A program made the translations under genes and the position numbers. This document shows positions 21,020 to 33,305 of a stretch of DNA of 64,000 nt, piece after piece. Location: the NCBI RefSeq assembly GCF_004216695.1, contig NZ_SGXC01000002.1:62001-126000 (forward strand), given 5' to 3'. The notes beneath the pieces are model-generated. The model saw only the letters and a list, made by a program, of their open reading frames with translations, searched no databases and had not been told where the DNA came from. Every line of letters begins with the position of its first letter. The first letter of the stretch is position 1. Origin of the DNA: Pigmentiphaga kullae (GTDB taxonomy: Bacteria > Pseudomonadota > Gammaproteobacteria > Burkholderiales > Burkholderiaceae_B).

Positions 21020-21868
21020 TCAGTCCAGCCGCCAGTACACGCCGCCCATGCCGCAGCGCATGGGCACCGAGGGTACGTAGAACACCGTTTCTGCGCGCGC
21101 GTTGCCGCACATGCCGGCCGCGCCCATGGCCACCACCCAGGCCAGCAGCTCCGCCGCGCCGCCATCCCCGCCGGTCAGCAGTTTCTCGAAGGTCAGCTCG
21201 CGCTTGACCCGCTCGGCGTTGCCTTCCTCCATCAAGGCCAGGAACCAGCGGTCGAACTCCTCGTGCACGGTGAAGTAATCCTTGCCGCCGGGATCGTGCG
21301 ACAGGCCGCCCGTGCCCATGATGACCACACGCTCGTCGGACGGGAAGGCCTGGACGATGCGCGCGATCGTCTCGCCCACCGCATGGCAGTGCGCCGCGGA
21401 GGGCACCGGCGGCACGATGGGATTCATGTGGATGGGAATGAAGCGCACGTCGTAGCGCGGAAACAGGAACTTCAGGGGTACCGACCAGTTGTCGTCGAAC
21501 AGCAGCTTGTCGGCGAACGCGTGGTTGATGCCCGCCCTGGCCGATTCGCGCACCAGCGCGCGGGCCATGTCGCGGTGGCCGCGTACCGTGTAGTCCGGCA
21601 CGTTCAGCCAGTCGCGGAACCACGGCGCCGGCCCGGCCCATTGTTCGCCTATGCCCACGCAGAAGTCCGGAATGTTGTCCAGCGAGAAGTTCAGCAGGTG
21701 GTCGTTGGCGATGCCGATGACCACGTCGGGCCGCACTTCGTCCATCAGTTTCTGGAATTGCGCGTAGCCGTCCAGCACGCCGTCCTGCTCGTGCTGGGGC
21801 GCCTTGTCTATCCAGCCGGTGACGCCGGGGGCGTGCGCCACGCCCAGGGTTGCGACGATCTTTGCCAT
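21020..21868 (-). CDS. Extradiol ring-cleavage dioxygenase, LigB-type catalytic subunit
   Basis: The Fe(II) subunit of a class III extradiol dioxygenase (protocatechuate 4,5-dioxygenase type), which opens a catechol-like or hydroxypyridine ring. The 282-residue protein keeps the LigB ligands: His12 (VAHAPG), His57 (ANDHLLNF), the general base His191 (GGLSHDPG) and Glu240 (GAAELLAW), almost the numbering of LigB itself. The small subunit precedes it by 14 nt. It is the last gene of a twelve-gene operon with a Liv-type transporter and several hydrolases. The substrate is not known from sequence; protocatechuate, gallate, aminophenol or a dihydroxypyridine acid are candidates. Confidence 0.9.
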   Translation of the reverse strand: MAKIVATLGVAHAPGVTGWIDKAPQHEQDGVLDGYAQFQKLMDEVRPDVVIGIANDHLLNFSLDNIPDFCVGIGEQWAGPAPWFRDWLNVPDYTVRGHRDMARALVRESARAGINHAFADKLLFDDNWSVPLKFLFPRYDVRFIPIHMNPIVPPVPSAAHCHAVGETIARIVQAFPSDERVVIMGTGGLSHDPGGKDYFTVHEEFDRWFLALMEEGNAERVKRELTFEKLLTGGDGGAAELLAWVVAMGAAGMCGNARAETVFYVPSVPMRCGMGGVYWRLD

Positions 21869-21882
21869 GCTTGTTCTCCGGA

Positions 21883-22188
21883 TCAGTCCTGCGATGCGAT
21901 GCCCATTTTTTCAGCGTACAGGCGCGCCGCGTCGCTGTCGTTGTGATTGCGCGAGCCGCCCTTGAACAGCCGCGATATCTGCGGCAGGAAGTAGGGGTGC
22001 ACGCCCATGGCGCCCAGCGCCTCGATGTCCATGTCGCGCCACGCGCGCTTTTCCTCGTCCGAAAGGCCGTACGCGGTCATGGATGCCTCGATGTCCTGCT
22101 TGAAGGCGAGGTACTTCTGTTCGTCGCGCCGCAGTTCGAACACCATGCGGTTCGATGGCAGGGTCTTGTCGGTGTCTCGGATTCCCAT
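21883..22188 (-). CDS. Extradiol dioxygenase small subunit, LigA-type
   Basis: A 101-residue all-helical protein of the LigA family, the alpha subunit that caps the active site of LigB-type dioxygenases. FKQDIEASMTAYGLSDEEKR and the helix containing ALGAMGVHPYFLPQISRLF are characteristic. ATG 22188 is chosen because AGGAG lies 6 nt upstream. LigA and LigB are separate proteins here, as in protocatechuate 4,5-dioxygenase and unlike the fused gallate dioxygenases. Confidence 0.88.
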   Translation of the reverse strand: MGIRDTDKTLPSNRMVFELRRDEQKYLAFKQDIEASMTAYGLSDEEKRAWRDMDIEALGAMGVHPYFLPQISRLFKGGSRNHNDSDAARLYAEKMGIASQD

Positions 22189-22222: not shown

Positions 22223-22945
22223 TCATTCGGCCGCGGCAACATTCAGCCAGCGGTCGAGTATCTCGGGCGATGCCCGCAGTTCCTCGCTCGAGGACCGGTG
22301 CACGACGCGGCCGCGGTCCAGGATCATGGCGGTCGAGGCCATGGCCAGGGCGATGACCGGATGCTGTTCGACCACGATGGTGGTCATGCCTTCCTGCGTG
22401 TGCAGGGCGATGATGGCGGCGCCCAGTTCCTCGACGACGATGGGGGCCAGGCCCTCCATGGGTTCGTCCAGCAGGAGCAGGCGCGGGTTGGTCATGAGCG
22501 CGCGGCCGACGGCCAGCATCTGCTGTTCTCCGCCGGACAGTTCGTTGCCCAGGTTGCCGCGCCGCTCGCGCAGCCGCGGGAACAGGCCATAGACCCGGTC
22601 CAGCGTCCACGGGCCGCGGCATGCGACCACGGTCAGGTTTTCCTCGACGGTCAGCGACGCGAACACTTCGCGCTCTTGCGGGACCCAGCCCAGGCCCGCC
22701 CGCGAGCGCTGGCAGGCGTCCAGCCGGGCGATGTCGCGGCCCTGCCAGAGCAGGCGTCCGGCTGTCTGGCGCGTATTGCCCATCAAGGTTTCGAGCAGGG
22801 TGGTCTTGCCCACGCCATTGCGGCCGAGCACCGCCAGGCTATCGCCGGCGCCCAGGCAGAACGAAAGGTCGTCCAGCACCATCGCGTCGCCGTAGCCGGC
22901 GCGCACGTGCTCCAGTTGCAGCAGGACGGGTGCGCTCGCGCTCAT
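22223..22945 (-). CDS. Branched-chain-type ABC transporter ATPase, LivF family
   Basis: The second cytosolic ATPase of a Liv/HAAT-family importer, 240 residues: Walker A GRNGVGKTTLLET, signature NELSGGEQQML, Walker B LLLLDEPMEGLAP, all as in LivF. The start overlaps the LivG stop by 4 nt. In a catabolic operon such transporters usually import aromatic or other carboxylic acids rather than leucine, so a gene name for branched-chain amino acids is not given. Confidence 0.93.
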   Translation of the reverse strand: MSASAPVLLQLEHVRAGYGDAMVLDDLSFCLGAGDSLAVLGRNGVGKTTLLETLMGNTRQTAGRLLWQGRDIARLDACQRSRAGLGWVPQEREVFASLTVEENLTVVACRGPWTLDRVYGLFPRLRERRGNLGNELSGGEQQMLAVGRALMTNPRLLLLDEPMEGLAPIVVEELGAAIIALHTQEGMTTIVVEQHPVIALAMASTAMILDRGRVVHRSSSEELRASPEILDRWLNVAAAE

Positions 22946-23694
22946 GCCGCCTCCAGGGGCGCCGCCTGGCCGAGGTAGGCCTCGCGCACGCGGGGGTCGC
23001 GGGCGATTTCCCCGGGCTGGCCGGTGGCGATGAGGCGGCCGGCCACGAGCACCGAGATGCGCTGCGCGAAGCGGAAGACGAGGTTCATGTCGTGTTCGAT
23101 CAGGAGAATGGCGATGTCCGGGGGCAGCTGGTCCAGGACCGCGAAGACGTGGCGGCTGTCGGCGGCCGAGACGCCGGCCGCCGGTTCGTCCAGCAGCAGC
23201 ACCTTGGGCTTGCGCGCCAGGGCGAGCGCGATTTCCACCAGCCGCTGCCGGCCGTAGGCGAGCTGGCGGGCGGGCCGGTGCGCATCCTGTGCCAGGCCGA
23301 TGCGTTCGAGCAGTTCCCAGGCCTCGCTGGCCGCCGGCTCATGCCGGCGCAGGGAACCGAACAGCGAGCGTACGGCGCCGGTGCGCGCCAGCACGACCAG
23401 CGTGACGGCCTCCAGCACGGTCATGTCCAGGAACAGCGTATTGATCTGGAAGGTGCGCACCAGCCCCAGGTCCACCCGCTTGTCGGGCGGCGCCGCCGTC
23501 ACGTCCGCGCCGTCCAGCAGGACGCGGCCCGAGGTCGGGCGCAGCATGCCGGTCAGCAGGTTGATGAAAGTCGTCTTGCCGGCGCCGTTCGGGCCGATCA
23601 GCGCATGCCGGTCGCCGGGCGCGAGAGACAGATTGACGTTGTCGGTCGCCACCAGCGCACCGAAGCGCTTGCACAGGTCCACGGTCTGGATCAT
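22942..23694 (-). CDS. Branched-chain-type ABC transporter ATPase, LivG family
   Basis: A cytosolic ATPase of 250 residues with Walker A GPNGAGKTTFINL, a divergent signature loop (ARQLAYGRQRLVEIA, where canonical proteins have LSYGxQR) and Walker B VLLLDEPAAGVS. The C-terminal GxPxEIxxxPxVxEAYLG segment is typical of LivG. The start overlaps the LivM stop (ATGA), and the whole transporter is a tightly coupled unit. Confidence 0.93.
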   Translation of the reverse strand: MIQTVDLCKRFGALVATDNVNLSLAPGDRHALIGPNGAGKTTFINLLTGMLRPTSGRVLLDGADVTAAPPDKRVDLGLVRTFQINTLFLDMTVLEAVTLVVLARTGAVRSLFGSLRRHEPAASEAWELLERIGLAQDAHRPARQLAYGRQRLVEIALALARKPKVLLLDEPAAGVSAADSRHVFAVLDQLPPDIAILLIEHDMNLVFRFAQRISVLVAGRLIATGQPGEIARDPRVREAYLGQAAPLEAA

Positions 23695-24668
23695 CGTTGC
23701 TCCCCTCTTTGCGCCAGGCGACGGGCGAGCCGCGCGGCGGTGCCCATGATGCCGCCGCGCGCGAAGAATATCGTGAGCACCAGCAGCAGGCCGAGCCAGA
23801 AATGCCAGTAGGCGGGGCTGATGCCGGACAGCAGGTCGCGGCCCACGACGAAGACCAGCGCGCCGATGAAGCCGCCGTACAGATAGCCCACGCCGCCCAG
23901 CGCGGCGATGATCAGAATGTCGGCCGAGCGCCCGAAGCCGAGCGCATCGATGGTGATGAACTGTGTGATCTGCGTCGTCAACGCGCCCGCGATGCCCGCC
24001 ACCGCCGCCGAGGCGGTGTAGGAGATCGCCAGCGTGCGACCGTCGTCGATACCCACGGCCAGCGCGCGGCGGCGGTTCATGCGCGTGGCATGCAGCGACA
24101 GGCCGTAGGGCGAATTGACCAGCCTGCGCACCAGGAACAGCGTGACGAAGGCCACGACGGCCGCGTACACATAGGCGGTCGACCCCATGAGGTCGAACGG
24201 GAAGAGGCCGAGCAGCGGCGTGAACTCGATGCCTTGCAGGCCGTCGATGCCGCCGGTGACCGCCGTGGCCTTGTTGGCGGCTTCGTACAGCACGAGGCCG
24301 ATGGCCAGCGTCACCATGAGCCGGCTCAGGTCGGTGCCGCGCACGACCAGCCGGCTGCCGAGCGCGCCCGCGCAGGCCGCGACGGCGGCGGCGACGGCCA
24401 GCGCCGAGACCGGTTCGTGCCAGCCGTACTTGCCGAGCCAGCCGGCGGTGAACGCACCCACGCCGAAGAACGCGGCATGGCCCAGGGTGACGATGCCCGC
24501 GTAGCCGAGCAGCATGTCGAGCGACAGCGCGAAGATGCCGGTGACCAGCACTTGCGCGCCCAGGCTGCGGTGATCGGGAAAGGCGAAGAACGCGGCGATG
24601 ATCAGCGCCCAGAATACGAGCTCGGGCGCGCGCCAGCGCGCGCGGTCCAGCAGCGGACTGCCGTTCAT
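23691..24668 (-). CDS. Branched-chain-type ABC transporter permease, LivM family
   Basis: An inner-membrane permease of 325 residues with about ten hydrophobic segments. LDMLLGYAGIVTLGHAAFFGVG is close to the LivM consensus, and the EAA-like loop carries GIDDGRTLAISYTASA. ATG 24668 is selected because it overlaps the LivH stop by 4 nt. The long in-frame extension upstream lies inside livH and is not coding. Confidence 0.92.
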   Translation of the reverse strand: MNGSPLLDRARWRAPELVFWALIIAAFFAFPDHRSLGAQVLVTGIFALSLDMLLGYAGIVTLGHAAFFGVGAFTAGWLGKYGWHEPVSALAVAAAVAACAGALGSRLVVRGTDLSRLMVTLAIGLVLYEAANKATAVTGGIDGLQGIEFTPLLGLFPFDLMGSTAYVYAAVVAFVTLFLVRRLVNSPYGLSLHATRMNRRRALAVGIDDGRTLAISYTASAAVAGIAGALTTQITQFITIDALGFGRSADILIIAALGGVGYLYGGFIGALVFVVGRDLLSGISPAYWHFWLGLLLVLTIFFARGGIMGTAARLARRLAQRGEQR

Positions 24669-25546
24669 GCGGCCCTCCTGCGTGCGAACAGGCTGTAGAG
24701 GCCTTGCGGCCGATAAAGCAGGACCGCCGCCATCAGCACATAGATCATGAATGCGCCGAACTCGGGCACGTAGTATTTGCTGCCGATGTCGCAGATGCCC
24801 AGCAGCATGGCGGCGAAGAAGGTGCCGTTGACCGAGCCGGCGCCGCCCAGCACCACCACGAGCAGGCACAGCACCAGCGTACGCGTGGCGAAGGCCGGAT
24901 CCAGGCCCAGCACCTCGGCCCCGAGCGCGCCGCCCAGCGCGGCCAGCCCGCTGCCGATGGCGAACGCGATCATGAAGACGCGCTTGACCGGTATGCCCAT
25001 CGAGGCCGCGATGCGCTGGTTGTCGACCGAGGCGCGGATCATCGCGCCCAGGCGGGTCGAGTCGAGCCCCCAGTTCAGCAGGGCAAGCAGGGCCATGCCC
25101 GTGCCGAGCAGCATCAACCGATACTTGGAGACGCTCAGGTCGCCCAGGTACCAGCGGCCGTCCAGGTACTCGGGCACCCGCACCGCCTGTTGCGACGGCC
25201 CCCAGAAATAGTGGACGATGCCGCCGGCCATCAGCATGAGCCCGAAGGTCAGGAGGCTCTGGTCGAGCGCCGTCGCGCGGTAGAAGGGCGCATAGATCAC
25301 GCGTTCCAGCACCAGGCTGGCCAGGGCGATCGCCACGACCACCGCCGCCACCGACGCGAAGAACGGCCAGGCCAGCTGGTTGACCAGCGAAACGAGGAAG
25401 TAGCCGCCGAACATGGCGACGGCGGTATGCGCGAGATTGACGAAACCCATCAATCCCAGCGTGATGGACAACCCGAGCGCGATCACGAACAGCATGGCGC
25501 CGTACGACGTTCCATCGATGATCACGCCGACGAAATCGGTCAGCAT
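24665..25546 (-). CDS. Branched-chain-type ABC transporter permease, LivH family
   Basis: A 293-residue permease: GTSYGAMLFVIALGLSITLGLMGFVNLAHTA is the signature opening of LivH proteins (shown in part, about residues 12-40), and VVLGGAGSVNGTFFAA near residue 240 is the second conserved block. It follows the binding protein by 13 nt and overlaps the LivM start. It pairs with LivM to form the channel. Confidence 0.92.
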   Translation of the reverse strand: MLTDFVGVIIDGTSYGAMLFVIALGLSITLGLMGFVNLAHTAVAMFGGYFLVSLVNQLAWPFFASVAAVVVAIALASLVLERVIYAPFYRATALDQSLLTFGLMLMAGGIVHYFWGPSQQAVRVPEYLDGRWYLGDLSVSKYRLMLLGTGMALLALLNWGLDSTRLGAMIRASVDNQRIAASMGIPVKRVFMIAFAIGSGLAALGGALGAEVLGLDPAFATRTLVLCLLVVVLGGAGSVNGTFFAAMLLGICDIGSKYYVPEFGAFMIYVLMAAVLLYRPQGLYSLFARRRAA

Positions 25547-25559
25547 GCGGACTCCTTGG

Positions 25560-26723
25560 TTAGCGGGCCTTGACGGCCTCGATCTTGTCGAACTCGACGT
25601 TGTAGAGTTCGCCCCCGACTTTCTGCACCTTGCGGATGTAGATGTCCTGCACGATGTCGCGCGTGGCGGGGTCGATCGAGATCGGGCCGCGCGGGCTGTC
25701 GAGCTTGAGCCCCTTCATCGCCGCGACGAGCTTGTCGCCGTCGGTATCGCCGCCCGTCTTCCTGACCGCGGCGTAGATCACGGCCATGGCGTCGTAGGCG
25801 CCCACGCCGATGAAATTGGGCCGCTTGCGCCCCTGGTCCCGGACCGCCTTGACGAAGGCGCGGTTCAGGTCGGAGTCGTGCGCGGCCGAGTAATGGTGCG
25901 CGGTGACGGTATCCAGCGCGACGTCGCCGATGGCCGGCAGCGAGTCGTCGTCGACCAGGTCGCCGGTGCCGATCAGGCGAATGCCGGCCTGCTTGAAACC
26001 GCGTTCGTTGTAGGCCTTCATGAAGGCAATGGCGGCTTCGCTGCCCGGCACGAACACGAAAATGGCGTCGGCGCGCGCATCGCGGGCCCGCTGCAGGAAC
26101 GGCGCGAACTCCATGCCGCTGACGGGCATGCGTATTTCGCCCGCCATCTGGCCGCCGGCGGCGGTGAACGCGTCCTTGAAGGCCTGGGCCGCGTCGTGGC
26201 CGGGGCCGTAGTCGGACACGAGCGAGAACACGCGCTTGATGCCGTTCCTGGCTGCCCACGTGGCCATGGGCGCGGAGGTCTGTCCGAGCGTGAACGCCGT
26301 GCGCACGATGTAGGGCGACTTCTCGGTGACGATGGCCGTGGCCGCGAGCGCGATCATCGGCGTCTTGGCCGCGGTGGCGATGGGCGCTGCGGCCAGGGCG
26401 TTGGGCGTGAAGTTGAAGCCCACCAGCGCATCGACCTTGTCGCGCGTGACGAGCTCCTGCGCGTAGCGGCGCGCGTTCTCGGGGGAAATGCCGCCGGTGT
26501 CGCGCAGGACGAGTTCGACCTTGCGGCCGGCCACGGTGTCGCCGTTGAGCTTCATGTAGGCGCGCATCGCGCTTTCGATGGACTGGCCGGCCGAGGCATA
26601 GGTGCCGGAGAACTCGGTGACGACGCCGATCTTAAGGGGTTTGTCGGCGGCGTGCGCGGGAGCGTACGCCGCCGCGGCGGCCAGGGCGCAGGATGCCAGG
26701 CGGGAACGAAGACGAAGTTTCAT
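25560..26723 (-). CDS. Periplasmic ligand-binding protein of Liv-type ABC transporter
   Basis: A 387-residue type-1 periplasmic binding protein (Peripla_BP_6). After a signal peptide ending in AAAYAPAHA comes the opening IGVVTEFSGTYASAGQS, then RDTGGISPENARRYAQELV and FIGVGAYDAMAVIYAAV. The first-lobe sequence resembles binding proteins for aromatic and related carboxylates more than LivK for leucine, though this cannot be settled by eye. ATG 26723 is chosen for the signal peptide; GGAGCAG lies upstream. It is located between a formamidase-like hydrolase and the permeases. Confidence 0.9.
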   Translation of the reverse strand: MKLRLRSRLASCALAAAAAYAPAHAADKPLKIGVVTEFSGTYASAGQSIESAMRAYMKLNGDTVAGRKVELVLRDTGGISPENARRYAQELVTRDKVDALVGFNFTPNALAAAPIATAAKTPMIALAATAIVTEKSPYIVRTAFTLGQTSAPMATWAARNGIKRVFSLVSDYGPGHDAAQAFKDAFTAAGGQMAGEIRMPVSGMEFAPFLQRARDARADAIFVFVPGSEAAIAFMKAYNERGFKQAGIRLIGTGDLVDDDSLPAIGDVALDTVTAHHYSAAHDSDLNRAFVKAVRDQGRKRPNFIGVGAYDAMAVIYAAVRKTGGDTDGDKLVAAMKGLKLDSPRGPISIDPATRDIVQDIYIRKVQKVGGELYNVEFDKIEAVKAR

Positions 26724-26740: not shown

Positions 26741-27604
26741 TCAGGTGTGGACGCGGGGCGCGGCGCCGCGGTTGCGAAGGCCGATCTGCTCGAACATCGC
26801 CGCCAGCAGCGGGCCGCCGGGCCGGTTGAGCTCGTCGATGATGGAAAAGTGGTCGTGGTCCTTCATGGGCACAAAGCGCGCGGGGTAGCCCGCGGCGGCC
26901 CAGGCGCGCGCATAGCCGGCGGACTGCTCGACGAATTCGGGCAGCTCTTTTTCGCCCACCGCGCAGATCAAGGGGCAGGCGGCGCGCGGCAGGTGCAGCA
27001 GGGGGCTGTTGCGCGCCGCGCCTGGCGCGTCCAGGCGCAGCCATTCGTTCATGAACGACTCGGCCATGGGCCGCATGTCGAAGATTCCGCTGACCGTCGT
27101 GACGCCCTTGACGAGATCGGCCGGCAGGCCCTGCTCGGCCCAATCGGTGGCCGCCGCCATGCCGGCCAGGTGGCCGCCCGCGGAATTGCCGCAAAGAAAG
27201 ATGCGATCGGGGTCGCCGCCGAACGAGGCCGCCTGGCGATGGACCCACGCCACGCCCCGGCGCACGGACGCGACCATGTCGTCCACGCTGGCGGCGGGCG
27301 CCAGGGGGTATTCCATGGAGATCCAGATGGCGCCCGCCGGCCCGAAAGCCTGGGCGGGAAAGCCGCGGTCGGACTTGCTCGAACCCTTCCATGCGCCGCC
27401 GTGCAGGTAGATCACCACGGGGGCGTGGGGGGCGTCCGCCAGATAGACGTCCAGCGTTTGCGCGGTTCCTTCGCCGTAGGCGAGGTCGAGCCGGGTCGGC
27501 CGCTGCTCGCGCGTGAGCCGGCTTGCCTCGGCGTAGCGTTGCAGGTGGGCGCGGAAGTCGGGGACCGTGGCCTCGATGTCGTAGGGAGCGGGACGTTCGT
27601 TCAT
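26741..27604 (-). CDS. Alpha/beta hydrolase, arylformamidase-like
   Basis: A 287-residue serine hydrolase of the Abhydrolase_3/kynurenine-formamidase-like group. The oxyanion motif HGGAW is at residues 68-72, the nucleophile elbow GNSAGG with Ser141, and the His in KDHDHFSI near 252; an acid near 218 probably completes the triad. ATG 27604 overlaps the stop of the preceding gene. The HGGxW...SKSD pattern also occurs in the C-terminal domain of the fusion protein encoded first in this operon, so the operon carries two related hydrolases. Cleavage of an N-formyl, amide or ester bond in the pathway is inferred. Confidence 0.85.
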   Translation of the reverse strand: MNERPAPYDIEATVPDFRAHLQRYAEASRLTREQRPTRLDLAYGEGTAQTLDVYLADAPHAPVVIYLHGGAWKGSSKSDRGFPAQAFGPAGAIWISMEYPLAPAASVDDMVASVRRGVAWVHRQAASFGGDPDRIFLCGNSAGGHLAGMAAATDWAEQGLPADLVKGVTTVSGIFDMRPMAESFMNEWLRLDAPGAARNSPLLHLPRAACPLICAVGEKELPEFVEQSAGYARAWAAAGYPARFVPMKDHDHFSIIDELNRPGGPLLAAMFEQIGLRNRGAAPRVHT

Positions 27605-28593
27605 GCGGGTCTCGTGGTGATGCGGTTCGAAGAAAAATTCGCGGGGGCGAGCCAGTCGCCGGGGTCGTGCTGCCGGCCGGACAGGCCCTGCTGGAAGTGA
27701 TAGCGGGCGAAGGCCCGCAGCAGTTCGCGGTTGGCGTCCAGGCCGTAGGGCCAGTAGTCCTCGCCCATCAGGTCCACGGTGCGCTGGTATTCCGCCGCGA
27801 CCCAGGGCAGGGTGGCGGCAAGCTGGCAGACGTCCCGGATATCCTGGAGGGCCATGCGCCGGGCGGCCTCGAAGCCTTGGCAGACCGCTTCGGCCAGCCA
27901 TGGATGGCGTTCGTGCAACTGGCGCCGCAGTCCCAGCAGATGCATGATGGGAAAGAAGCCGGTGCGCCGGTAGTAGTCCTGCTCGACCCCTTGAGAATCC
28001 GGGAACAGGCGGACCACGGCGTCCCGTCCGGGGCCGAAGCTGGACGGCACCTTGGCGCCGATGACCGCGTCGATGTCCCCTCGGGCCAGCATCGCGGACA
28101 AGTCCCGGTCCGGCAGGGCGCGGATGGGAACGCCCGGGATGGCGGTGGCGGCGGCCGGACCCGGTTCGCCGGCCTCCATGGCGGCCTCCACCCACTGCAT
28201 CTCGCGGGGTTGGACGCCGTGGTCGTGGTCCAGGAAAGCCCGGATCCAGACGTTGGCCGTCGTCTTGTAGTCCGGCGTTCCGATGATCCTGCCGCGCAGG
28301 TCTGACGGAGAGCGGATGCCCTTGCCCGCATGCACGTAGATGCCGCTGTGCCGGAAGGCCCGCGAAGGGAAGACCGGCAGCGCGACATAGGCCGGGTTTC
28401 CCGCATCCAGCGACCGCAGGTAGCCGCTCAGGGACAGCTCGGTCAGGTCGAATTCGGCCGCCTTCGCGCGCGCGAAGGCGGCCTCGGGGTGCAGCGTCGT
28501 CGCCCGCAGGGCGACGCCTTCGATGGCGACCCGCCCGTCGATCAGCGGCCGCGTCCGGTCATAGGCGGCGCAGGCAAGCGTCAGCGTCAGCAT
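27601..28593 (-). CDS. 4,5-Dihydroxyphthalate decarboxylase-like protein
   Basis: A 330-residue protein with the periplasmic-binding fold of the Pht5/4,5-dihydroxyphthalate decarboxylase family. It has no signal peptide, so it is probably a cytosolic enzyme. Supporting segments are FDLTELSLSGYLRSL, GIRSPSDLRGRIIG and the late VDLMGEDYWPYGLDANR, the family's most typical stretch. Start ATG 28593 lies 19 nt after the Bug gene; its stop overlaps the hydrolase start. Family members may be decarboxylases or binding proteins, so catalytic activity is likely but not proven. Confidence 0.8.
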   Translation of the reverse strand: MLTLTLACAAYDRTRPLIDGRVAIEGVALRATTLHPEAAFARAKAAEFDLTELSLSGYLRSLDAGNPAYVALPVFPSRAFRHSGIYVHAGKGIRSPSDLRGRIIGTPDYKTTANVWIRAFLDHDHGVQPREMQWVEAAMEAGEPGPAAATAIPGVPIRALPDRDLSAMLARGDIDAVIGAKVPSSFGPGRDAVVRLFPDSQGVEQDYYRRTGFFPIMHLLGLRRQLHERHPWLAEAVCQGFEAARRMALQDIRDVCQLAATLPWVAAEYQRTVDLMGEDYWPYGLDANRELLRAFARYHFQQGLSGRQHDPGDWLAPANFSSNRITTRPA

Positions 28594-28612: not shown

Positions 28613-29596
28613 TCATTTCGCGATCCCCGCGTCGGCGATCACCTTTCTCCACCGGGTCGCCTCGGCGTCGATCAGCGACGAGAACTGCGCGCGGCTGGTG
28701 TTGCCGGTCAGCATGCCCATTTCCGCATAGCGCTTGCGCACTTCCGGGTCGGCCAGCGCCTGCCGCGCGGCGGCGTTGAGCTTGTCCAGCACCGCCGGGT
28801 CCGTTCCCTTGGGCGCGGCCAGGCCTATCCAGCTGCCTGTCTGGAGGGCGCCGTAGCCCGCCTCCGCGGTGGTCGGCACGTTGGGCAGGATGTCGAGCCG
28901 CTCGTTGGCCGCGACCGCGATGGGCTGGATGGTGCCGGCCTTGAGCGGACCCGCGATGGGGCCCGCGGTGTAGAAAGCCACGTTCACGTCGTTGCGCAGC
29001 AAGGCCAGCACGACTGGGGGCGAGCCGTTGAACGGGACGTGGGTCATCGAGACGTTGGCCAGGTTGGCGAAGAATTCGGCCGCGAGGTGGGGCGGGGTGC
29101 CGATGCCGGGCGAGCCGAAGTTCACCTTGCCCGGACGTTCCTTCGCGTACGCCGCCAACTCGCGCAGGCTGCGGGCCGGGACGGCGGGATTGACGACCAC
29201 GATCGTCGGCGCGTTGCTGATCAGCGCGATGGGATCGAACGCCGTCAGCGGGTCGAATGTCATGTCGCGATAGAGATACTGGTTGGTCGCGAAATTGTTC
29301 ACCGCTCCCAGCAGCAGCGTATAGCCGTCGGGCGCGGCGCGCGCCACGTCCGCTGCGCCCAGGTTGCCGGAGGCGCCGGGCTTGTTTTCGATGACGAGCG
29401 GTTGCCCGAGCTGTTTCTCCATCAGCGGCGCGATCAGGCGGAAGCTGACGTCTCCCAGTCCGCCCGCGCCGTAGGGGTTGACGATGCGTATGGGCCGGGA
29501 AGGATAGGCATTGCTCTGCGCCCAGGCTGCGCCATGGGCGGCCAGGGGCAGCAGTACGAGGGAATATCGGGCAAGGCGATGGTGGAACGGCTTCAT
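28613..29596 (-). CDS. Bug/TctC-family periplasmic solute-binding protein
   Basis: A 327-residue Bug receptor with signal peptide (ending AAHGAAWAQ). YPSRPIRIVNPYGAGGLGDV and VIENKPGASGNLG are the two conserved ligand loops. It is the second type of solute receptor in this operon, next to a complete Liv-type ABC system, suggesting either uptake of two compounds or a sensing role. No tctAB genes are present. ATG 29596 is chosen for the signal peptide. Confidence 0.9.
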   Translation of the reverse strand: MKPFHHRLARYSLVLLPLAAHGAAWAQSNAYPSRPIRIVNPYGAGGLGDVSFRLIAPLMEKQLGQPLVIENKPGASGNLGAADVARAAPDGYTLLLGAVNNFATNQYLYRDMTFDPLTAFDPIALISNAPTIVVVNPAVPARSLRELAAYAKERPGKVNFGSPGIGTPPHLAAEFFANLANVSMTHVPFNGSPPVVLALLRNDVNVAFYTAGPIAGPLKAGTIQPIAVAANERLDILPNVPTTAEAGYGALQTGSWIGLAAPKGTDPAVLDKLNAAARQALADPEVRKRYAEMGMLTGNTSRAQFSSLIDAEATRWRKVIADAGIAK

Positions 29597-29687: not shown

Positions 29688-30845
29688 TCAGGGCTCGCCG
29701 TAGAAGGCGGCCGCATTGTCGTAGAGGAACTTGCGCTTCTGGTCCTTGGTGAGATCCTGGCGCTCGATGATCTCCATCGCGGCGTTGTCCCGCCCTTCGC
29801 CATGAGGGAAATCCGAGGAATAAAGAAGCTGGCCGTCGCCCAGCAGCTTGAGTTCGTGCGCCAGCATGGCGTCGCTGGATTCGGGGCCCAGGTAGATGCG
29901 TCCCGATTTCACCAGGTCGTCCACTTCGCTCTTGGGCAGCATGCTGGGGTCGGCCATCCGGCCCTTGTTGACTTCGGCGTACTGCTTCATGCGCCCGACC
30001 GAATAGAAGATCCATTCGCCGCCGAACTCCAGGAACGCGACCTTCAGGCTGGGATACTTGTCCAGCATGCCGTGGCCGGCCATGGCCATGAAGGCCAGTT
30101 GCGCGGGCATGGCCTTGCCGATCATGTTGGCATCCTGGATCGACTCGCACAGTTGCGCCAGCGGCGGAAAGCTCATGGCCATGTGCACGCACAGGGGCAG
30201 CCCGGTGCGCGAGAATTCGTTCCAGATCGGCTCGAAGCTCGGATGCGACAGCATGCGGTCGCCCACGGTCCCGAACACCACGGCGGCGGCCGCGCCCATG
30301 GCGACCATTTCCTTCATGGCCAGCCGGGCCTGCTCGGCGTCCCGCATGGGCAGCAGGCCCACCCAGCGCAGGCGCTTGGCCGCGTCCCGGCAGCGCGTGC
30401 CGATGTAGCGGTTGTAGGCCCGGAAGAGTTCGCCTTCCAGCGTGGCGTCCGCGGCGATGGTCGCGTAGATGGTGCTGGGGAACAGGACCTGGACGTCGAT
30501 GCCGAGCTTGTCCATGGCGGTGAGCCGGTCGGCGACGTCGCCCATCGTGACACAGCCGACAGGCAGGGAGAATGCGGTGAAATCGCCTGCCCGCGCGCGG
30601 TTGGCGCCGTACTCCTCCAGCACCATGCCGGGGGTGTTGGCAGCGTGCGTGCCGGGTCCGAACGGATGCGGCTCGATGCGGCCGTCCACCAGCCACCCCG
30701 TGCCCCAGTTGCCGAGTTCATGGCCGTCGCCGAACTTGACCGGCCGCGGACGCCGCAGCCAATACTGTTTGGGAAGGGTTTCCCACATTTCCGGGGTCAT
30801 TAGAACGTGGGCATCTGCGTCATAAATCTTGAATCCTTCAAGCAT
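29688..30845 (-). CDS. Metal-dependent amidohydrolase/decarboxylase (ACMSD-like, Amidohydro_2)
   Basis: A 385-residue TIM-barrel enzyme of the Amidohydro_2 family, which holds ACMSD, LigW/LigJ-type and o-pyrocatechuate decarboxylases. The metal-binding opening is YDADAHVLMTPEMW, strand 5 carries the His in LCVHMAMSF, and the last ligand is in LLYSSDFPHGEG. GHGMLDKYPSLKVAFLEFGG is a strong family marker. AAGGA precedes ATG 30845, which is preferred to an upstream in-frame start. In this operon it could decarboxylate an aromatic acid or hydrate/hydrolyse a ring-fission product; the two cannot be told apart by eye. Confidence 0.85.
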   Translation of the reverse strand: MLEGFKIYDADAHVLMTPEMWETLPKQYWLRRPRPVKFGDGHELGNWGTGWLVDGRIEPHPFGPGTHAANTPGMVLEEYGANRARAGDFTAFSLPVGCVTMGDVADRLTAMDKLGIDVQVLFPSTIYATIAADATLEGELFRAYNRYIGTRCRDAAKRLRWVGLLPMRDAEQARLAMKEMVAMGAAAAVVFGTVGDRMLSHPSFEPIWNEFSRTGLPLCVHMAMSFPPLAQLCESIQDANMIGKAMPAQLAFMAMAGHGMLDKYPSLKVAFLEFGGEWIFYSVGRMKQYAEVNKGRMADPSMLPKSEVDDLVKSGRIYLGPESSDAMLAHELKLLGDGQLLYSSDFPHGEGRDNAAMEIIERQDLTKDQKRKFLYDNAAAFYGEP

Positions 30846-30933: not shown

Positions 30934-32469
30934 TCAACCCGGCAGGCCCATCAGCCGCAGCGCGGCCTGGGACAGGGCGGAGCCGGGGTCGTTCAACCGG
31001 GTCACGATTTCGTAGTGGTTCGTGGCGGGCAGCAGCATCAGCTCCACCTGCTTGTCCTGCTCCTGTGCGGCGCGGACGAAGTCGCGCGCCTGGCGCTGGA
31101 ACTCCGGGCTTTCGCGGTCGCCGACCGCGACGACCGCGGGACAGTTCAGGCGGGACAGGTGCCGGATGGGGCTGTAGCGCTCGATCTCGTCCGGCTGGAG
31201 CTTCACGTAGCCGCTGCGCGCGCTGAGCATGACCGGATGCAGGTCGTACATGCCGCTGATCAGCAGCGCGCTCTTGATCAGGTCGGCGGGCAGGTGCAGG
31301 GACTCCCAGTCCGTGGTCGCCAGGACCGCAGCCATGTGGGCGCCGGACGAGTGGCCCGACAGGTGGATGCGGTCGGGGTCGCCGCCGAAGCGGGAGGCCT
31401 TGGCGCGGATCCAGGCCAGCGCACGGCGGGTCTGGGCAATCATGTCGGGCAGGCGCACCTCGGGAATCAGCGAAAAATCCAGCACCACCAATACGCCGCC
31501 CGCGGGGACCAGCGTGCGCGCCAGGAAGGATTCGTCGTCCTTGCTGAGGTTGCGCCAGCCGCCGCCGTGCACGTGCACGTGGATGGGCGCGCCTTGTTGC
31601 TGCGCCGGAAAGATGTCCAGCGTCTCGTGGGGGCCGGGGCCATAGGGAACGTGCCGGTGATGCGGATATTCGTCGCGGGCGCCGGCGCTGGCCTGCGCGT
31701 ACCAGGCCAGCATGGCGTCCCGGTTGTCGGCCCAGGCGCGCTGGTCGTAGGCGCGATCCAGTTCTTCCTGCGTGTAGTCCAGGTAGACCCGCCGGGGCGA
31801 GGTCTGCCAATGGGACGCGAGCGTGTCCAGCCGGGTGACGTCGCCCAGCAGGAAGCGGACGTTGTTCAGCGTGGCGTCGTGCGCGGGCTGCGTGTGCGAC
31901 GCCACGCAATCCTCGGGCACCACGCAGTGAAAGCCCAGCGCGTTCGCGTGGCGCAGCGTGGCTTCGACGCAGATGTTGGTCTGGACGCCCGCGAAGACCA
32001 GGGTACGGATGCCGCGGGCGCGCAGTGCATGTTCAAGGGCGGTGCCGACGAAGCCGTCGTAGCTGTTCTTTTCCAGCACCGGTTCGCCGGGCAGGGGCTG
32101 CACGCCGTACCAGTCGTAGCCCCAGGTGTCGCGGTCGCAGCAGACGTCGGTGATGCCTTGCTCGGCCAGCTTGGTGCGCATGGACGCGGGCAGCAGGTCG
32201 GGCCGGTAGCAGGCGCGCAGCCAGAAGACGGGGAGACCATGTCCGCGCGCGGAATCGAGCAGGGACTGGAGCCGGGGCACGATGGCGCAGCACGCTGCGA
32301 TGTCCTTGCCGATGACACGTTCGACATAGCCGCCGGGGGCGCAGAAATCGTTCTGCATGTCGATCACCAGCACGGCCGTGTGGGCAGCGTCCACCCGGGC
32401 CGCCAGGGAAAGGAGGGGCTGCGCATCCGATAAATCGCGATAGGCGTCGGCTTTCAATTCCTTCTCCAT
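30934..32469 (-). CDS. Fusion of isochorismatase-like cysteine hydrolase and alpha/beta hydrolase
   Basis: A single 511-residue reading frame joins two complete hydrolases. Residues 1 to about 225 are an isochorismatase-like cysteine hydrolase with triad Asp37 (VIDMQNDF), Lys134 (LEKNSYDGF) and Cys167 (VQTNICVEA, preceded by the usual cis-peptide region). Residues about 226-511 are a formamidase-like alpha/beta hydrolase with oxyanion motif HGGGW (301-305), nucleophile Ser374 (SGHSSGAH) and His485 (ATNHYE). All catalytic residues are present in both halves. ATG 32469 is chosen because a TTGACA promoter element lies where the longer reading would start. It is the first gene of the catabolic operon and probably acts on an amide or N-formyl intermediate. 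Confidence 0.88.
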   Translation of the reverse strand: MEKELKADAYRDLSDAQPLLSLAARVDAAHTAVLVIDMQNDFCAPGGYVERVIGKDIAACCAIVPRLQSLLDSARGHGLPVFWLRACYRPDLLPASMRTKLAEQGITDVCCDRDTWGYDWYGVQPLPGEPVLEKNSYDGFVGTALEHALRARGIRTLVFAGVQTNICVEATLRHANALGFHCVVPEDCVASHTQPAHDATLNNVRFLLGDVTRLDTLASHWQTSPRRVYLDYTQEELDRAYDQRAWADNRDAMLAWYAQASAGARDEYPHHRHVPYGPGPHETLDIFPAQQQGAPIHVHVHGGGWRNLSKDDESFLARTLVPAGGVLVVLDFSLIPEVRLPDMIAQTRRALAWIRAKASRFGGDPDRIHLSGHSSGAHMAAVLATTDWESLHLPADLIKSALLISGMYDLHPVMLSARSGYVKLQPDEIERYSPIRHLSRLNCPAVVAVGDRESPEFQRQARDFVRAAQEQDKQVELMLLPATNHYEIVTRLNDPGSALSQAALRLMGLPG

Positions 32470-32532
32470 AATCGATGATCTTTTTATTTTCGATTTTTGT
32501 GTGATTTTTAGGAATAATCGATTATCTGTCAA
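32468..32532 (-). promoter_or_regulatory. Operon promoter with paired palindromic operators
   Basis: On the minus strand, a perfect -35 TTGACA (32532-32527) is followed after 17 nt by AAAAAT (32509-32504, four of six matches to TATAAT), giving a leader of about 28 nt to ATG 32469. A perfect 12-bp palindrome ATAATCGATTAT (32514-32525) fills the spacer. A near copy, ATAATCGATGAT (32468-32479), overlaps the start codon; the centres are 46 bp apart. Both sit in an AT-rich island between the operon and the divergent GntR gene, so repression by that regulator is the simplest reading. Confidence 0.6.
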
Positions 32533-32561: not shown

Positions 32562-33305
32562 ATGGATCAAAAGACGAGGAGCATGATGAAACTGGCATCG
32601 GTGGTGCCGGCTGGACAGCCGGCTCCGAGCACGGGACAGAATTTCGCGAGCACGATTGCGACCCGGTTGCGCAACGACATCGTGTCCGGCAGACGTCCCC
32701 CGGGCGCCAGGCTTTCCATCGAGGAACTCAAGGGGGACTTCGGCGTCAGCCTTTCCCCCCTGCGCGAGGCGCTGGCCAGGCTGGCCACCGAGGGCTTCGT
32801 GGTCAACGAAGACAAGAAAGGCTTCAAGGTCGCGCCGGTATCGCGCGAGAACCTGCTCGAGGTGGCGAAACTACAGTCCACGCTCGAGCCCATGGCGCTG
32901 CGCGAGTCCATCCGGCACGGCACCCGCGACTGGGAGGACGGCATCGTCCTGACCCACCACCGGCTCACGCGCTACGAGCGTCCGGAACAGAAGGACGGCG
33001 GGGGCGTCGACGAATGGGAAGCGCATCACCGCGAGTTCCACCTGGCGCTGCTGGCGGCCTGCCGCATGCCGCTGGCGCTGATGGTGTGCGATTCGCTGCA
33101 GCATTTCAGCGCGCGCTACCGGCGCCTGTTCCTGGCCTACAAGCCCTTCGACCGCGACGTTGCCCAGGAGCACCGTTCGCTGGTGGACGCGACGCTGGAC
33201 CGCAAGGAAGACCTGGCCGCGGAGATCCTGGCCGAGCACATCGAACGAACAGCTCGAAACATCCTGGCGGCGCTGGATGCGGGGGGTGTGGCGGCGGCGA
33301 GTTGA
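32562..33305 (+). CDS. GntR-family regulator, FCD (FadR-type) effector domain
   Basis: A 247-residue GntR/FadR-subfamily regulator. The winged helix spans residues about 28-95, with SIEELKGDFGVSLSPLREAL as the recognition region. The FCD ligand domain follows, with metal-binding candidates such as His150-Glu-Phe-His in EAHHREFHLAL and the late EHRSLVDATLD. It is divergent from the twelve-gene catabolic operon, and palindromes lie in the shared 92-nt gap, so it probably represses that operon until the substrate or an intermediate binds. ATG 32562 is given; ATG 32583/32586 just after GAGGAG is a real alternative. Confidence 0.9.
   Translation: MDQKTRSMMKLASVVPAGQPAPSTGQNFASTIATRLRNDIVSGRRPPGARLSIEELKGDFGVSLSPLREALARLATEGFVVNEDKKGFKVAPVSRENLLEVAKLQSTLEPMALRESIRHGTRDWEDGIVLTHHRLTRYERPEQKDGGGVDEWEAHHREFHLALLAACRMPLALMVCDSLQHFSARYRRLFLAYKPFDRDVAQEHRSLVDATLDRKEDLAAEILAEHIERTARNILAALDAGGVAAAS

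What the first reader, a model, noticed from the sequence alone, without database searches (positions are those of the whole stretch)
30934..32469. Isochorismatase-like hydrolase fused to a formamidase-like alpha/beta hydrolase
Both halves keep full catalytic sets (Asp37-Lys134-Cys167; HGGGW 301-305, Ser374, His485). In nicotinate-type N-heterocycle pathways a deformylase of the alpha/beta-hydrolase fold and an amidase of the isochorismatase fold act in sequence (NicD, NicF). A fusion of the same two folds heading an operon with a ring-opening dioxygenase suggests a bifunctional enzyme that removes formyl and amide groups from a ring-fission product, or two cuts on the entering substrate. I do not know of a described fusion of this kind.
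Basis: partly seen in the sequence, partly recalled or inferred. Interest (0 to 1): 0.75.

Follow-up and report, generated by a model that had tools for sequence, protein, structure and literature searches.

The report
Fused amidase–hydrolase in ring-degradation operon
A bacterium carries two usually separate cutting enzymes joined into one protein, in an operon that also encodes a ring-opening enzyme; the join is real and conserved in close relatives, and gene neighbours suggest that at least the first half cuts an amide made when a ring is opened.

Summary
Minus-strand ORF 32469-30934 encodes 511 aa: an isochorismatase-fold half (Asp37, Lys134, Cys167) joined to an Abhydrolase_3-type half (HGGGW 301-305, Ser374, His485; I add Glu453). 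It heads a 12-gene co-directional run ending in LigA-LigB. The join is not an error: 6 of 268 family genomes, all in the window's genus, have it in frame; both halves are under purifying selection (dN/dS 0.13, 0.12), the linker is loose (0.61). Elsewhere the halves are separate genes. The first half belongs with the dioxygenase: all 22 LigB loci of the window's clade that were found through LigB have an isochorismatase (18) or an FmdA-family gene of another fold (4) in the cluster; 1 of 26 control LigB loci has a weak match. So the first half is probably the amidase for the ring-fission product, which suggests a nitrogen-bearing ring. The second half's role is open: 19 of 22 unfused LigAB-isochorismatase stretches lack such a hydrolase, so a deformylase, an entry esterase or a C-C hydrolase remain possible. 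A 4,5-dihydroxyphthalate-decarboxylase homologue leaves a carbocyclic substrate open. New variant: a conserved, apparently undescribed fusion in an uncharacterised LigAB-amidase cluster.

The parts
30934..32469 (-). 511-aa fusion: isochorismatase-fold domain (residues about 19-212) + linker (213-228) + Abhydrolase_3/BD-FAE domain (about 229-511)
29688..30845 (-). Amidohydrolase_2 family protein (possible decarboxylase); at E 1e-70 found only in the 6 genomes that have the fusion
28613..29596 (-). TctC/Bug-type solute-binding protein
27601..28593 (-). homologue of 4,5-dihydroxyphthalate decarboxylase (PDB 9jp7)
   Evidence: E 4.7e-81
26741..27604 (-). second alpha/beta hydrolase (ABH2), of a different clade from the fused one
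25560..26723 (-). LivJ-like periplasmic binding protein
24665..25546 (-). LivH-like permease
23691..24668 (-). LivM-like permease
22942..23694 (-). LivG-like ATPase (named by reading the sequence and by place; not scanned against Pfam)
22223..22945 (-). LivF-like ATPase (named by reading the sequence and by place; not scanned against Pfam)
21883..22188 (-). LigA-like small subunit
21020..21868 (-). LigB-like class III extradiol dioxygenase; the two metal His, the Glu and the catalytic His of the family sit in conserved columns (residue roles recalled)
32562..33305 (+). divergent GntR/FCD regulator
32514..32525 (.). palindrome ATAATCGATTAT, likely operator, 56-57 nt before the start in 6 of 6 fused loci; it lies between the -35-like and -10-like hexamers

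Best explanation
A bifunctional hydrolase of a catabolic operon. LigAB opens a dihydroxylated ring that holds or carries nitrogen (a dihydroxypyridine-type acid is the likeliest; inferred). The isochorismatase half, by Cys167 attack helped by Asp37 and Lys134, cuts the amide C-N bond of the ring-fission product (inferred from conserved neighbourhood and from replacement by FmdA). The alpha/beta-hydrolase half (Ser374, His485, Glu453, HGGGW oxyanion hole) makes a second cut on the same or a neighbouring intermediate, most plausibly N-deformylation (weakly supported). Joining fixes a 1:1 ratio and may pass the intermediate on. Shown: the fusion, intact residues, selection on both halves, operon, LigAB linkage of the first half. 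Inferred: both reactions and the substrate.
For: Fusion in 6 of 268 family genomes with the same junction; mean dN/dS 0.129, 0.613 and 0.115 for isochorismatase half, linker and hydrolase half over 15 pairs (some linker pairs undefined). LigB-found loci of the window's clade: 22 of 22 with an isochorismatase (18) or FmdA-family gene (4) in the cluster; 1 of 26 control LigB loci. Over 32 clade loci, many found through isochorismatase, 26 have one within 6 kb. LigAB-linked isochorismatases cluster on their tree: 8 changes against 19.3 shuffled, 0 of 500 as low. Precedent for the order decarboxylase, dioxygenase, deformylase, amidohydrolase: the pic cluster (passages of PMC10142695). Precedent for a LigB-family 3,4-dihydroxypyridine dioxygenase PydA and an alpha/beta hydrolase KpiB on the N-formyl product: passages of PMC7356986 and PMC3637104.
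Against: No hydroxylase in the operon and no biochemical data. 19 of 22 distinct unfused LigAB-isochorismatase stretches show no hydrolase like either of the operon's two, so the second cut is not part of the core. The operon has a second alpha/beta hydrolase. The 4,5-dihydroxyphthalate decarboxylase homologue fits a carbocyclic route. The FmdA relatives are assigned by family: the one scanned scores 81.7 of 500 bits on the formamidase model. PydA's DDHFENH motif is absent (ANDHLLNF here), and its sister place on the tree is weak (87/57, long branch). The controls were screened with one isochorismatase and one FmdA query only; two of them hold hydantoinase genes and two (L182, L209) a RidA match.
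Confidence: 0.45

Rival explanations
1. The two halves act at different ends of the pathway: the hydrolase half is an entry esterase/amidase that frees the substrate, the isochorismatase half works after ring opening; the fusion only couples expression.
For: 19 of 22 unfused LigAB-isochorismatase stretches have no such hydrolase; a hydrolase of this kind sits in a Liv transporter operon elsewhere (L136), and relatives of the fused half are separate genes in the genomes searched.
Against: Five of the six fused strains already have a second hydrolase, ABH2, in the operon; coupling of expression alone needs no fusion inside an operon.
Confidence: 0.25
2. Carbocyclic route: the operon breaks down an amide-bearing phthalate- or protocatechuate-like acid. 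The decarboxylase homologue makes a protocatechuate-like diol for LigAB, the isochorismatase half removes a carboxamide side group, and the hydrolase half is an esterase.
For: 9jp7-type decarboxylase at E 4.7e-81; best PDB hit of LigB is protocatechuate 4,5-dioxygenase 1b4u; nearest solved relatives of the C half are a lipase and esterases.
Against: The decarboxylase query hits none of the unfused LigAB-isochorismatase stretches; replacement by an FmdA (formamidase/acetamidase family) gene fits a small amide better.
Confidence: 0.2
3. Nitrogen scavenging: the isochorismatase half is a biuret/ureidoacrylate-type hydrolase on a ureido compound, and LigAB neighbourhood is incidental.
For: Best solved relatives are biuret hydrolase 6xjm and RutB; the transporter has similarity to urea ABC proteins below their cut-offs.
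Against: Scores far under the BiuH and RutB cut-offs (117.8 of 370, 112.5 of 377.95); 22 of 22 against 1 of 26 linkage to LigAB (and others).
Confidence: 0.08

Closest known systems
nic/pic lower pathway (NicX/PicD dioxygenase, NicD/PicE N-formylmaleamate deformylase, NicF/PicF maleamate amidohydrolase, PicC decarboxylase)
   Same: same kinds of step: amidohydrolase-family decarboxylase, ring opening, deformylase, maleamate amidohydrolase (passages of PMC10142695; that the last is an isochorismatase fold is recalled, NicD's alpha/beta-hydrolase fold is stated in PMC7356986)
   Different: here deformylase-like and amidase-like folds are fused, the dioxygenase is LigAB, and the N half is not close to the structure recalled as NicF
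PydA / Kpi route for 3,4-dihydroxypyridine
   Same: LigB-family dioxygenase for a pyridine diol (PydA) and an alpha/beta hydrolase acting on 3-(N-formyl)-formiminopyruvate (KpiB) (PMC7356986 and PMC3637104, passages); a PydA-motif locus in G177 has GntR, alpha/beta hydrolase, RidA, LigB and FAH-like genes (named by reading the sequences)
   Different: no isochorismatase match there (L182); PydA motif DDHFENH absent here; weak sister relation only
biuret hydrolase (6xjm) and RutB (8bkd)
   Same: best solved relatives of the N half, E 4e-27 and 5e-25
   Different: single-domain chains of 244 and 230 aa; score far below their equivalog cut-offs
kynurenine formamidase (4e11) and Lipase 1 (9n8r)
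   Same: serine hydrolases matching most of the C half
   Different: single-domain chains; profile favours Lipase 1 (2.8e-60) over formamidase (4.6e-31), so the reaction is open
known isochorismatase fusions in siderophore synthesis
   Same: isochorismatase domain joined to another enzyme (one table row of PMC4921024, passage)
   Different: partners there are 2,3-dihydroxybenzoate-AMP ligase and isochorismate synthase, not an alpha/beta hydrolase

Membership tests
Isochorismatase family (PF00857) | profile match and Asp-Lys-Cys set | tested here: met
   E 1.5e-42; D37, K134, C167 invariant in 32 of 32 chosen rows; residues 31-210 in model blocks of mean pLDDT 92-98
Biuret hydrolase BiuH / RutB | NCBIfam equivalog cut-off | tested here: not met
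   117.8 of 370 and 112.5 of 377.95 bits
NicF/PicF maleamate amidohydrolase | closest similarity to NicF | tested here: not met
   3ot4/3uao (recalled to be NicF) E 2.9e-10, against 4e-27 for biuret hydrolase
NicF/PicF maleamate amidohydrolase | hydrolysis of maleamate | not testable with these tools
   needs an assay
Abhydrolase_3 / HGGxW serine hydrolases | profile match, oxyanion motif, nucleophile Ser, His | tested here: met
HaHSL hormone-sensitive lipase family NF058665 | NCBIfam cut-off | tested here: not met
   136.1 of 320 bits
Kynurenine formamidase / NicD deformylase | hydrolysis of an N-formyl amide | not testable with these tools
   sequence only: 4e11 E 4.6e-31 with profile A3; no NicD sequence was compared
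PydA 3,4-dihydroxypyridine dioxygenase | conserved DDHFENH motif (PMC3637104) | tested here: not met
   ANDHLLNF in the window LigB; tree sister 87/57
class III extradiol dioxygenase (LigAB) | PF02900 and PF07746 matches, conserved His/His/Glu/His columns | tested here: met
   (residue roles recalled)
4,5-dihydroxyphthalate decarboxylase (operon gene 27601-28593) | strong match to the solved enzyme | tested here: inconclusive
   9jp7 E 4.7e-81; no Pfam or NCBIfam hit at 1e-5; activity untested

The most novel reading that the evidence does not exclude
The clade of LigAB enzymes that travels with an amidase (isochorismatase or FmdA) is a separate, uncharacterised ring-cleavage route for N-heteroaromatic diols spread over Alpha-, Beta- and Gammaproteobacteria, Tectomicrobia and a Corynebacterium plasmid, and in one branch of the window's genus its deformylase and amidase steps have been welded into one bifunctional enzyme.
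Probability: 0.3. Interest if true: 0.7.

Novelty: new variant of a known kind. Interest (0 to 1): 0.5.

Why it matters
A natural fusion of two hydrolases next to one ring-opening enzyme suggests that the two cuts belong to one pathway, and it names the enzymes to assay. The amidase-linked LigAB clade predicts a ring-cleavage route whose substrate can be found by testing a short list of dihydroxypyridine acids and amide-bearing catechols. It could give a one-protein tool for clearing N-heterocyclic pollutants.

Tried and rejected
Sequencing error or frameshift join: rejected, since six genomes share the in-frame junction. Fusion partner as a recent copy of the operon's second hydrolase: rejected, the two fall in separate clades. 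Simple stop loss in the G192/G193 arrangement: rejected, because the gene behind isochorismatase there is the ABH2 orthologue (64%), not the fused kind (39%). Other fusions: 11 genes with long open frames or matches reaching into the first half were fetched; over all 244 held sequences only frames of the same six genomes carry both domains, 19 frames with repeats. Origin of the inserted block (fusion, amidohydrolase, Bug, decarboxylase): not found; the amidohydrolase occurs at 1e-70 in just the same 6 of 268 genomes and in no plasmid record at 1e-30. PydA orthology: motif absent. Structure: the N half is good, the C half is not usable (mean pLDDT 65.6, pTM 0.47), so no statement on domain contact is made. 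Promoter scan: 1 found against 1.1 expected, so only its place beside the palindrome is of use. A link between LigAB and a free-standing hydrolase of the fused kind elsewhere in the genome: by my count from the printed rows, 6 of the 15 family genomes outside the genus with such a match at E up to about 1e-67 are LigAB-positive, against 7 LigAB-positive of 257. The threshold was chosen afterwards, two of the 15 (G127, G074) fall in another clade, not all 15 were in the tree, only five candidates per genome were scored and shared ancestry is not removed, so I do not lean on it. My gene caller was trained on this high-GC window and misses genes in low-GC loci; absences there rest on tblastn. On recheck I lowered the best explanation from 0.5 to 0.45 and raised the two-ends rival from 0.2 to 0.25, because one search gave the fuller count of 19 of 22 stretches without a hydrolase.

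Full report
What is there. The ORF at 30934-32469 is on the minus strand and encodes 511 aa from an ATG at 32469. Pfam finds an Isochorismatase domain (31-213, E 1.5e-42) and an Abhydrolase_3/BD-FAE domain (285-485, about 1e-19 to 1e-18). The nearest named records, at 93-96%, are Pigmentiphaga and other Alcaligenaceae or Burkholderiales strains, so the window is probably from that genus; that is an inference.

The fusion is genuine. Of 268 genomes of the family, 6 have a match along the whole protein, all in the window's genus (11 genomes, 6 with the fusion); the other printed matches cover one half, or run a little past it (at most five candidates per genome were scored and the row list was cut). 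None of 356 plasmid records with a match covers 80% of the protein. Of 399 genomes of the order only the window's own shows a full-length match (three candidates scored each). Genes whose match or open frame reached further were fetched: none of 11 has an isochorismatase part, and over all 244 held sequences only the same six genomes have both domains in one frame. Over six fused orthologues the mean pairwise dN/dS is 0.129 for the first half, 0.613 for the linker (residues 213-228, some pairs undefined) and 0.115 for the second half. Both halves are being kept, and the linker drifts.

The operon. Twelve genes run the same way from 32469 to 21020 with gaps of -4 to 91 bases: the fusion, an Amidohydro_2 protein, a TctC/Bug solute-binding protein, a homologue of 4,5-dihydroxyphthalate decarboxylase (9jp7, E 4.7e-81), a second alpha/beta hydrolase (ABH2), LivJ, LivH, LivM, LivG, LivF, LigA and LigB. 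A GntR/FCD regulator is divergent. In 6 of 6 fused loci the palindrome ATAATCGATTAT stands 56-57 nt before the start codon, and a near copy overlaps the start. A -35/-10-like pair brackets it (as many are expected by chance in the region), so it is a likely operator.

The locus in the genus. At one chromosomal site G192 and G193 have isochorismatase, ABH2, LivJHMGF, LigA, LigB as separate genes; G191 and G198 have isochorismatase, LigA, LigB only; G197 has fusion, amidohydrolase, Bug, decarboxylase, LigA, LigB; the window and, by the genes called, G196 have the full set, and G190, G194 and G195 match as far as the fetched loci and positions reach. The eleventh, G189, has no close LigB. The amidohydrolase occurs at 1e-70 in just the same 6 of 268 genomes as the fusion, so fusion, amidohydrolase, Bug and decarboxylase look like one inserted block. 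The fused hydrolase is not a copy of ABH2: they lie in separate clades. The window LigB is 86-90% identical to that of G198 and G191, but the isochorismatase half is only 54-55% identical to theirs, and on the tree the fused rows lie outside the group that holds them (99/94). The isochorismatase slot seems to have been replaced together with the fusion.

The link to ring cleavage. The window LigB belongs to a clade of 37 of 54 rows (support 100/99), apart from gallate-, protocatechuate- and carbazole-annotated LigB. To avoid bias I count the clade loci found through LigB itself: 17 close ones and G110 and G112 in the family (a twentieth match, in G159, fell outside the clade), G387 in the class, and two plasmids, of Bosea and Corynebacterium (of 114 records six were opened, and only these two fell in the clade). 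All 22 have one of two amidase families in the cluster: 18 an isochorismatase, which in the seven strains with Liv genes between lies about 6 kb (G192, G193) or 9 kb (five) away on the same strand, and 4 an FmdA-family gene. Only the Corynebacterium FmdA was scanned: PF03069 at 3.7e-37, but 81.7 of 500 bits on the formamidase model; the other three are tblastn matches to it at 33-43%. Of all 32 clade loci examined, many of them found through isochorismatase, 26 have one of the two within 6 kb. The six others are the window and G193 (same run, further off), two at contig ends, L170 (creatininase and RidA) and L195 (an alpha/beta hydrolase). Of 26 control LigB loci outside the clade, mostly from the same genomes, one has a weak isochorismatase match of 42 bits and none an FmdA; two have hydantoinase genes and two a RidA match, which shows that nitrogen enzymes occur there too. 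Amidases of other families would have been missed in both sets. LigAB-linked isochorismatases are clustered on their tree, 8 changes against 19.3 in shuffles, 0 of 500 as low (three fused rows counted there as unlinked because LigB lay beyond the fetched stretch). An unrelated amidase family in the same slot argues that the conserved need is amide hydrolysis, which a nitrogen-free catechol would not create.

What it most likely does. LigAB opens a diol ring that holds or carries nitrogen; the isochorismatase half cuts the resulting amide; the second half cuts once more, most plausibly an N-formyl bond. The pic and nic routes use the same kinds of step with separate enzymes (passages of PMC10142695), and the 3,4-dihydroxypyridine routes give a LigB-family dioxygenase (PydA) and an alpha/beta hydrolase acting on the N-formyl product (KpiB) (passages of PMC7356986 and PMC3637104). 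None of this is shown for the window. Against it: 19 of 22 distinct unfused LigAB-isochorismatase stretches have no hydrolase like the operon's two (L055, G192 and G193 do), the second half is closer to Lipase 1 than to kynurenine formamidase, the decarboxylase homologue would suit a phthalate-like acid, and the PydA motif is absent.

Structure. One model was made. Residues 31-210 of the first half lie in ten-residue blocks of mean pLDDT 92-98; the second half had only five sequences and is unusable. The second job and the fold searches could not be run because the machine was busy or the library was absent.

Novelty. Searches of the paper library for isochorismatase with dihydroxypyridine and dioxygenase, with fusion, alpha/beta hydrolase and formamidase terms, with extradiol or ring-cleavage dioxygenase terms (20 of 53 listed) and with Pigmentiphaga (none) gave listings in which I saw no described fusion of this kind. 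In the one opened for it, PMC4921024, the single isochorismatase fusion is with siderophore enzymes (passage). The library holds open-licence papers only, so this is no proof. I rate it a new variant of known enzymes, of moderate interest; the amidase-linked LigAB clade behind it may be the more interesting object.

Noticed in passing
L141 (NZ_CP014329.1, Corynebacterium glutamicum plasmid p48A), 6111-12179: Plasmid cluster of two hydantoinase genes (the first scores 684 of 1000 bits on the caprolactamase model), LigB, LigA and an FmdA-family gene: a possible lactam or N-ring degradation cassette.
   Followed up: partly
L057, 7989-9400: A Tectomicrobia contig has two isochorismatase genes in tandem right behind LigA-LigB.
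   Followed up: no
L044, L049 and L173: LigAB-isochorismatase clusters that also hold a cupin of the 3-hydroxyanthranilate dioxygenase family (below the equivalog cut-offs); L044 and L049 add an Amidohydro_2-type protein and a RidA match, and L049 a creatininase, which hints at aminophenol-type chemistry.
   Followed up: partly
L182, 5226-13039 (G177): A PydA-motif LigB (246-aa frame) sits with genes that read as GntR, alpha/beta hydrolase, RidA, a sugar-type ABC transporter and an FAH-family protein: a likely 3,4-dihydroxypyridine cluster.
   Followed up: no
L127, 10226-10678 and relatives (L045-L047, L173-L175): A conserved protein of about 150 aa near LigAB-isochorismatase, with no NCBIfam or Pfam hit; I had guessed carboxymuconolactone decarboxylase-like, which the scans do not support.
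   Followed up: partly
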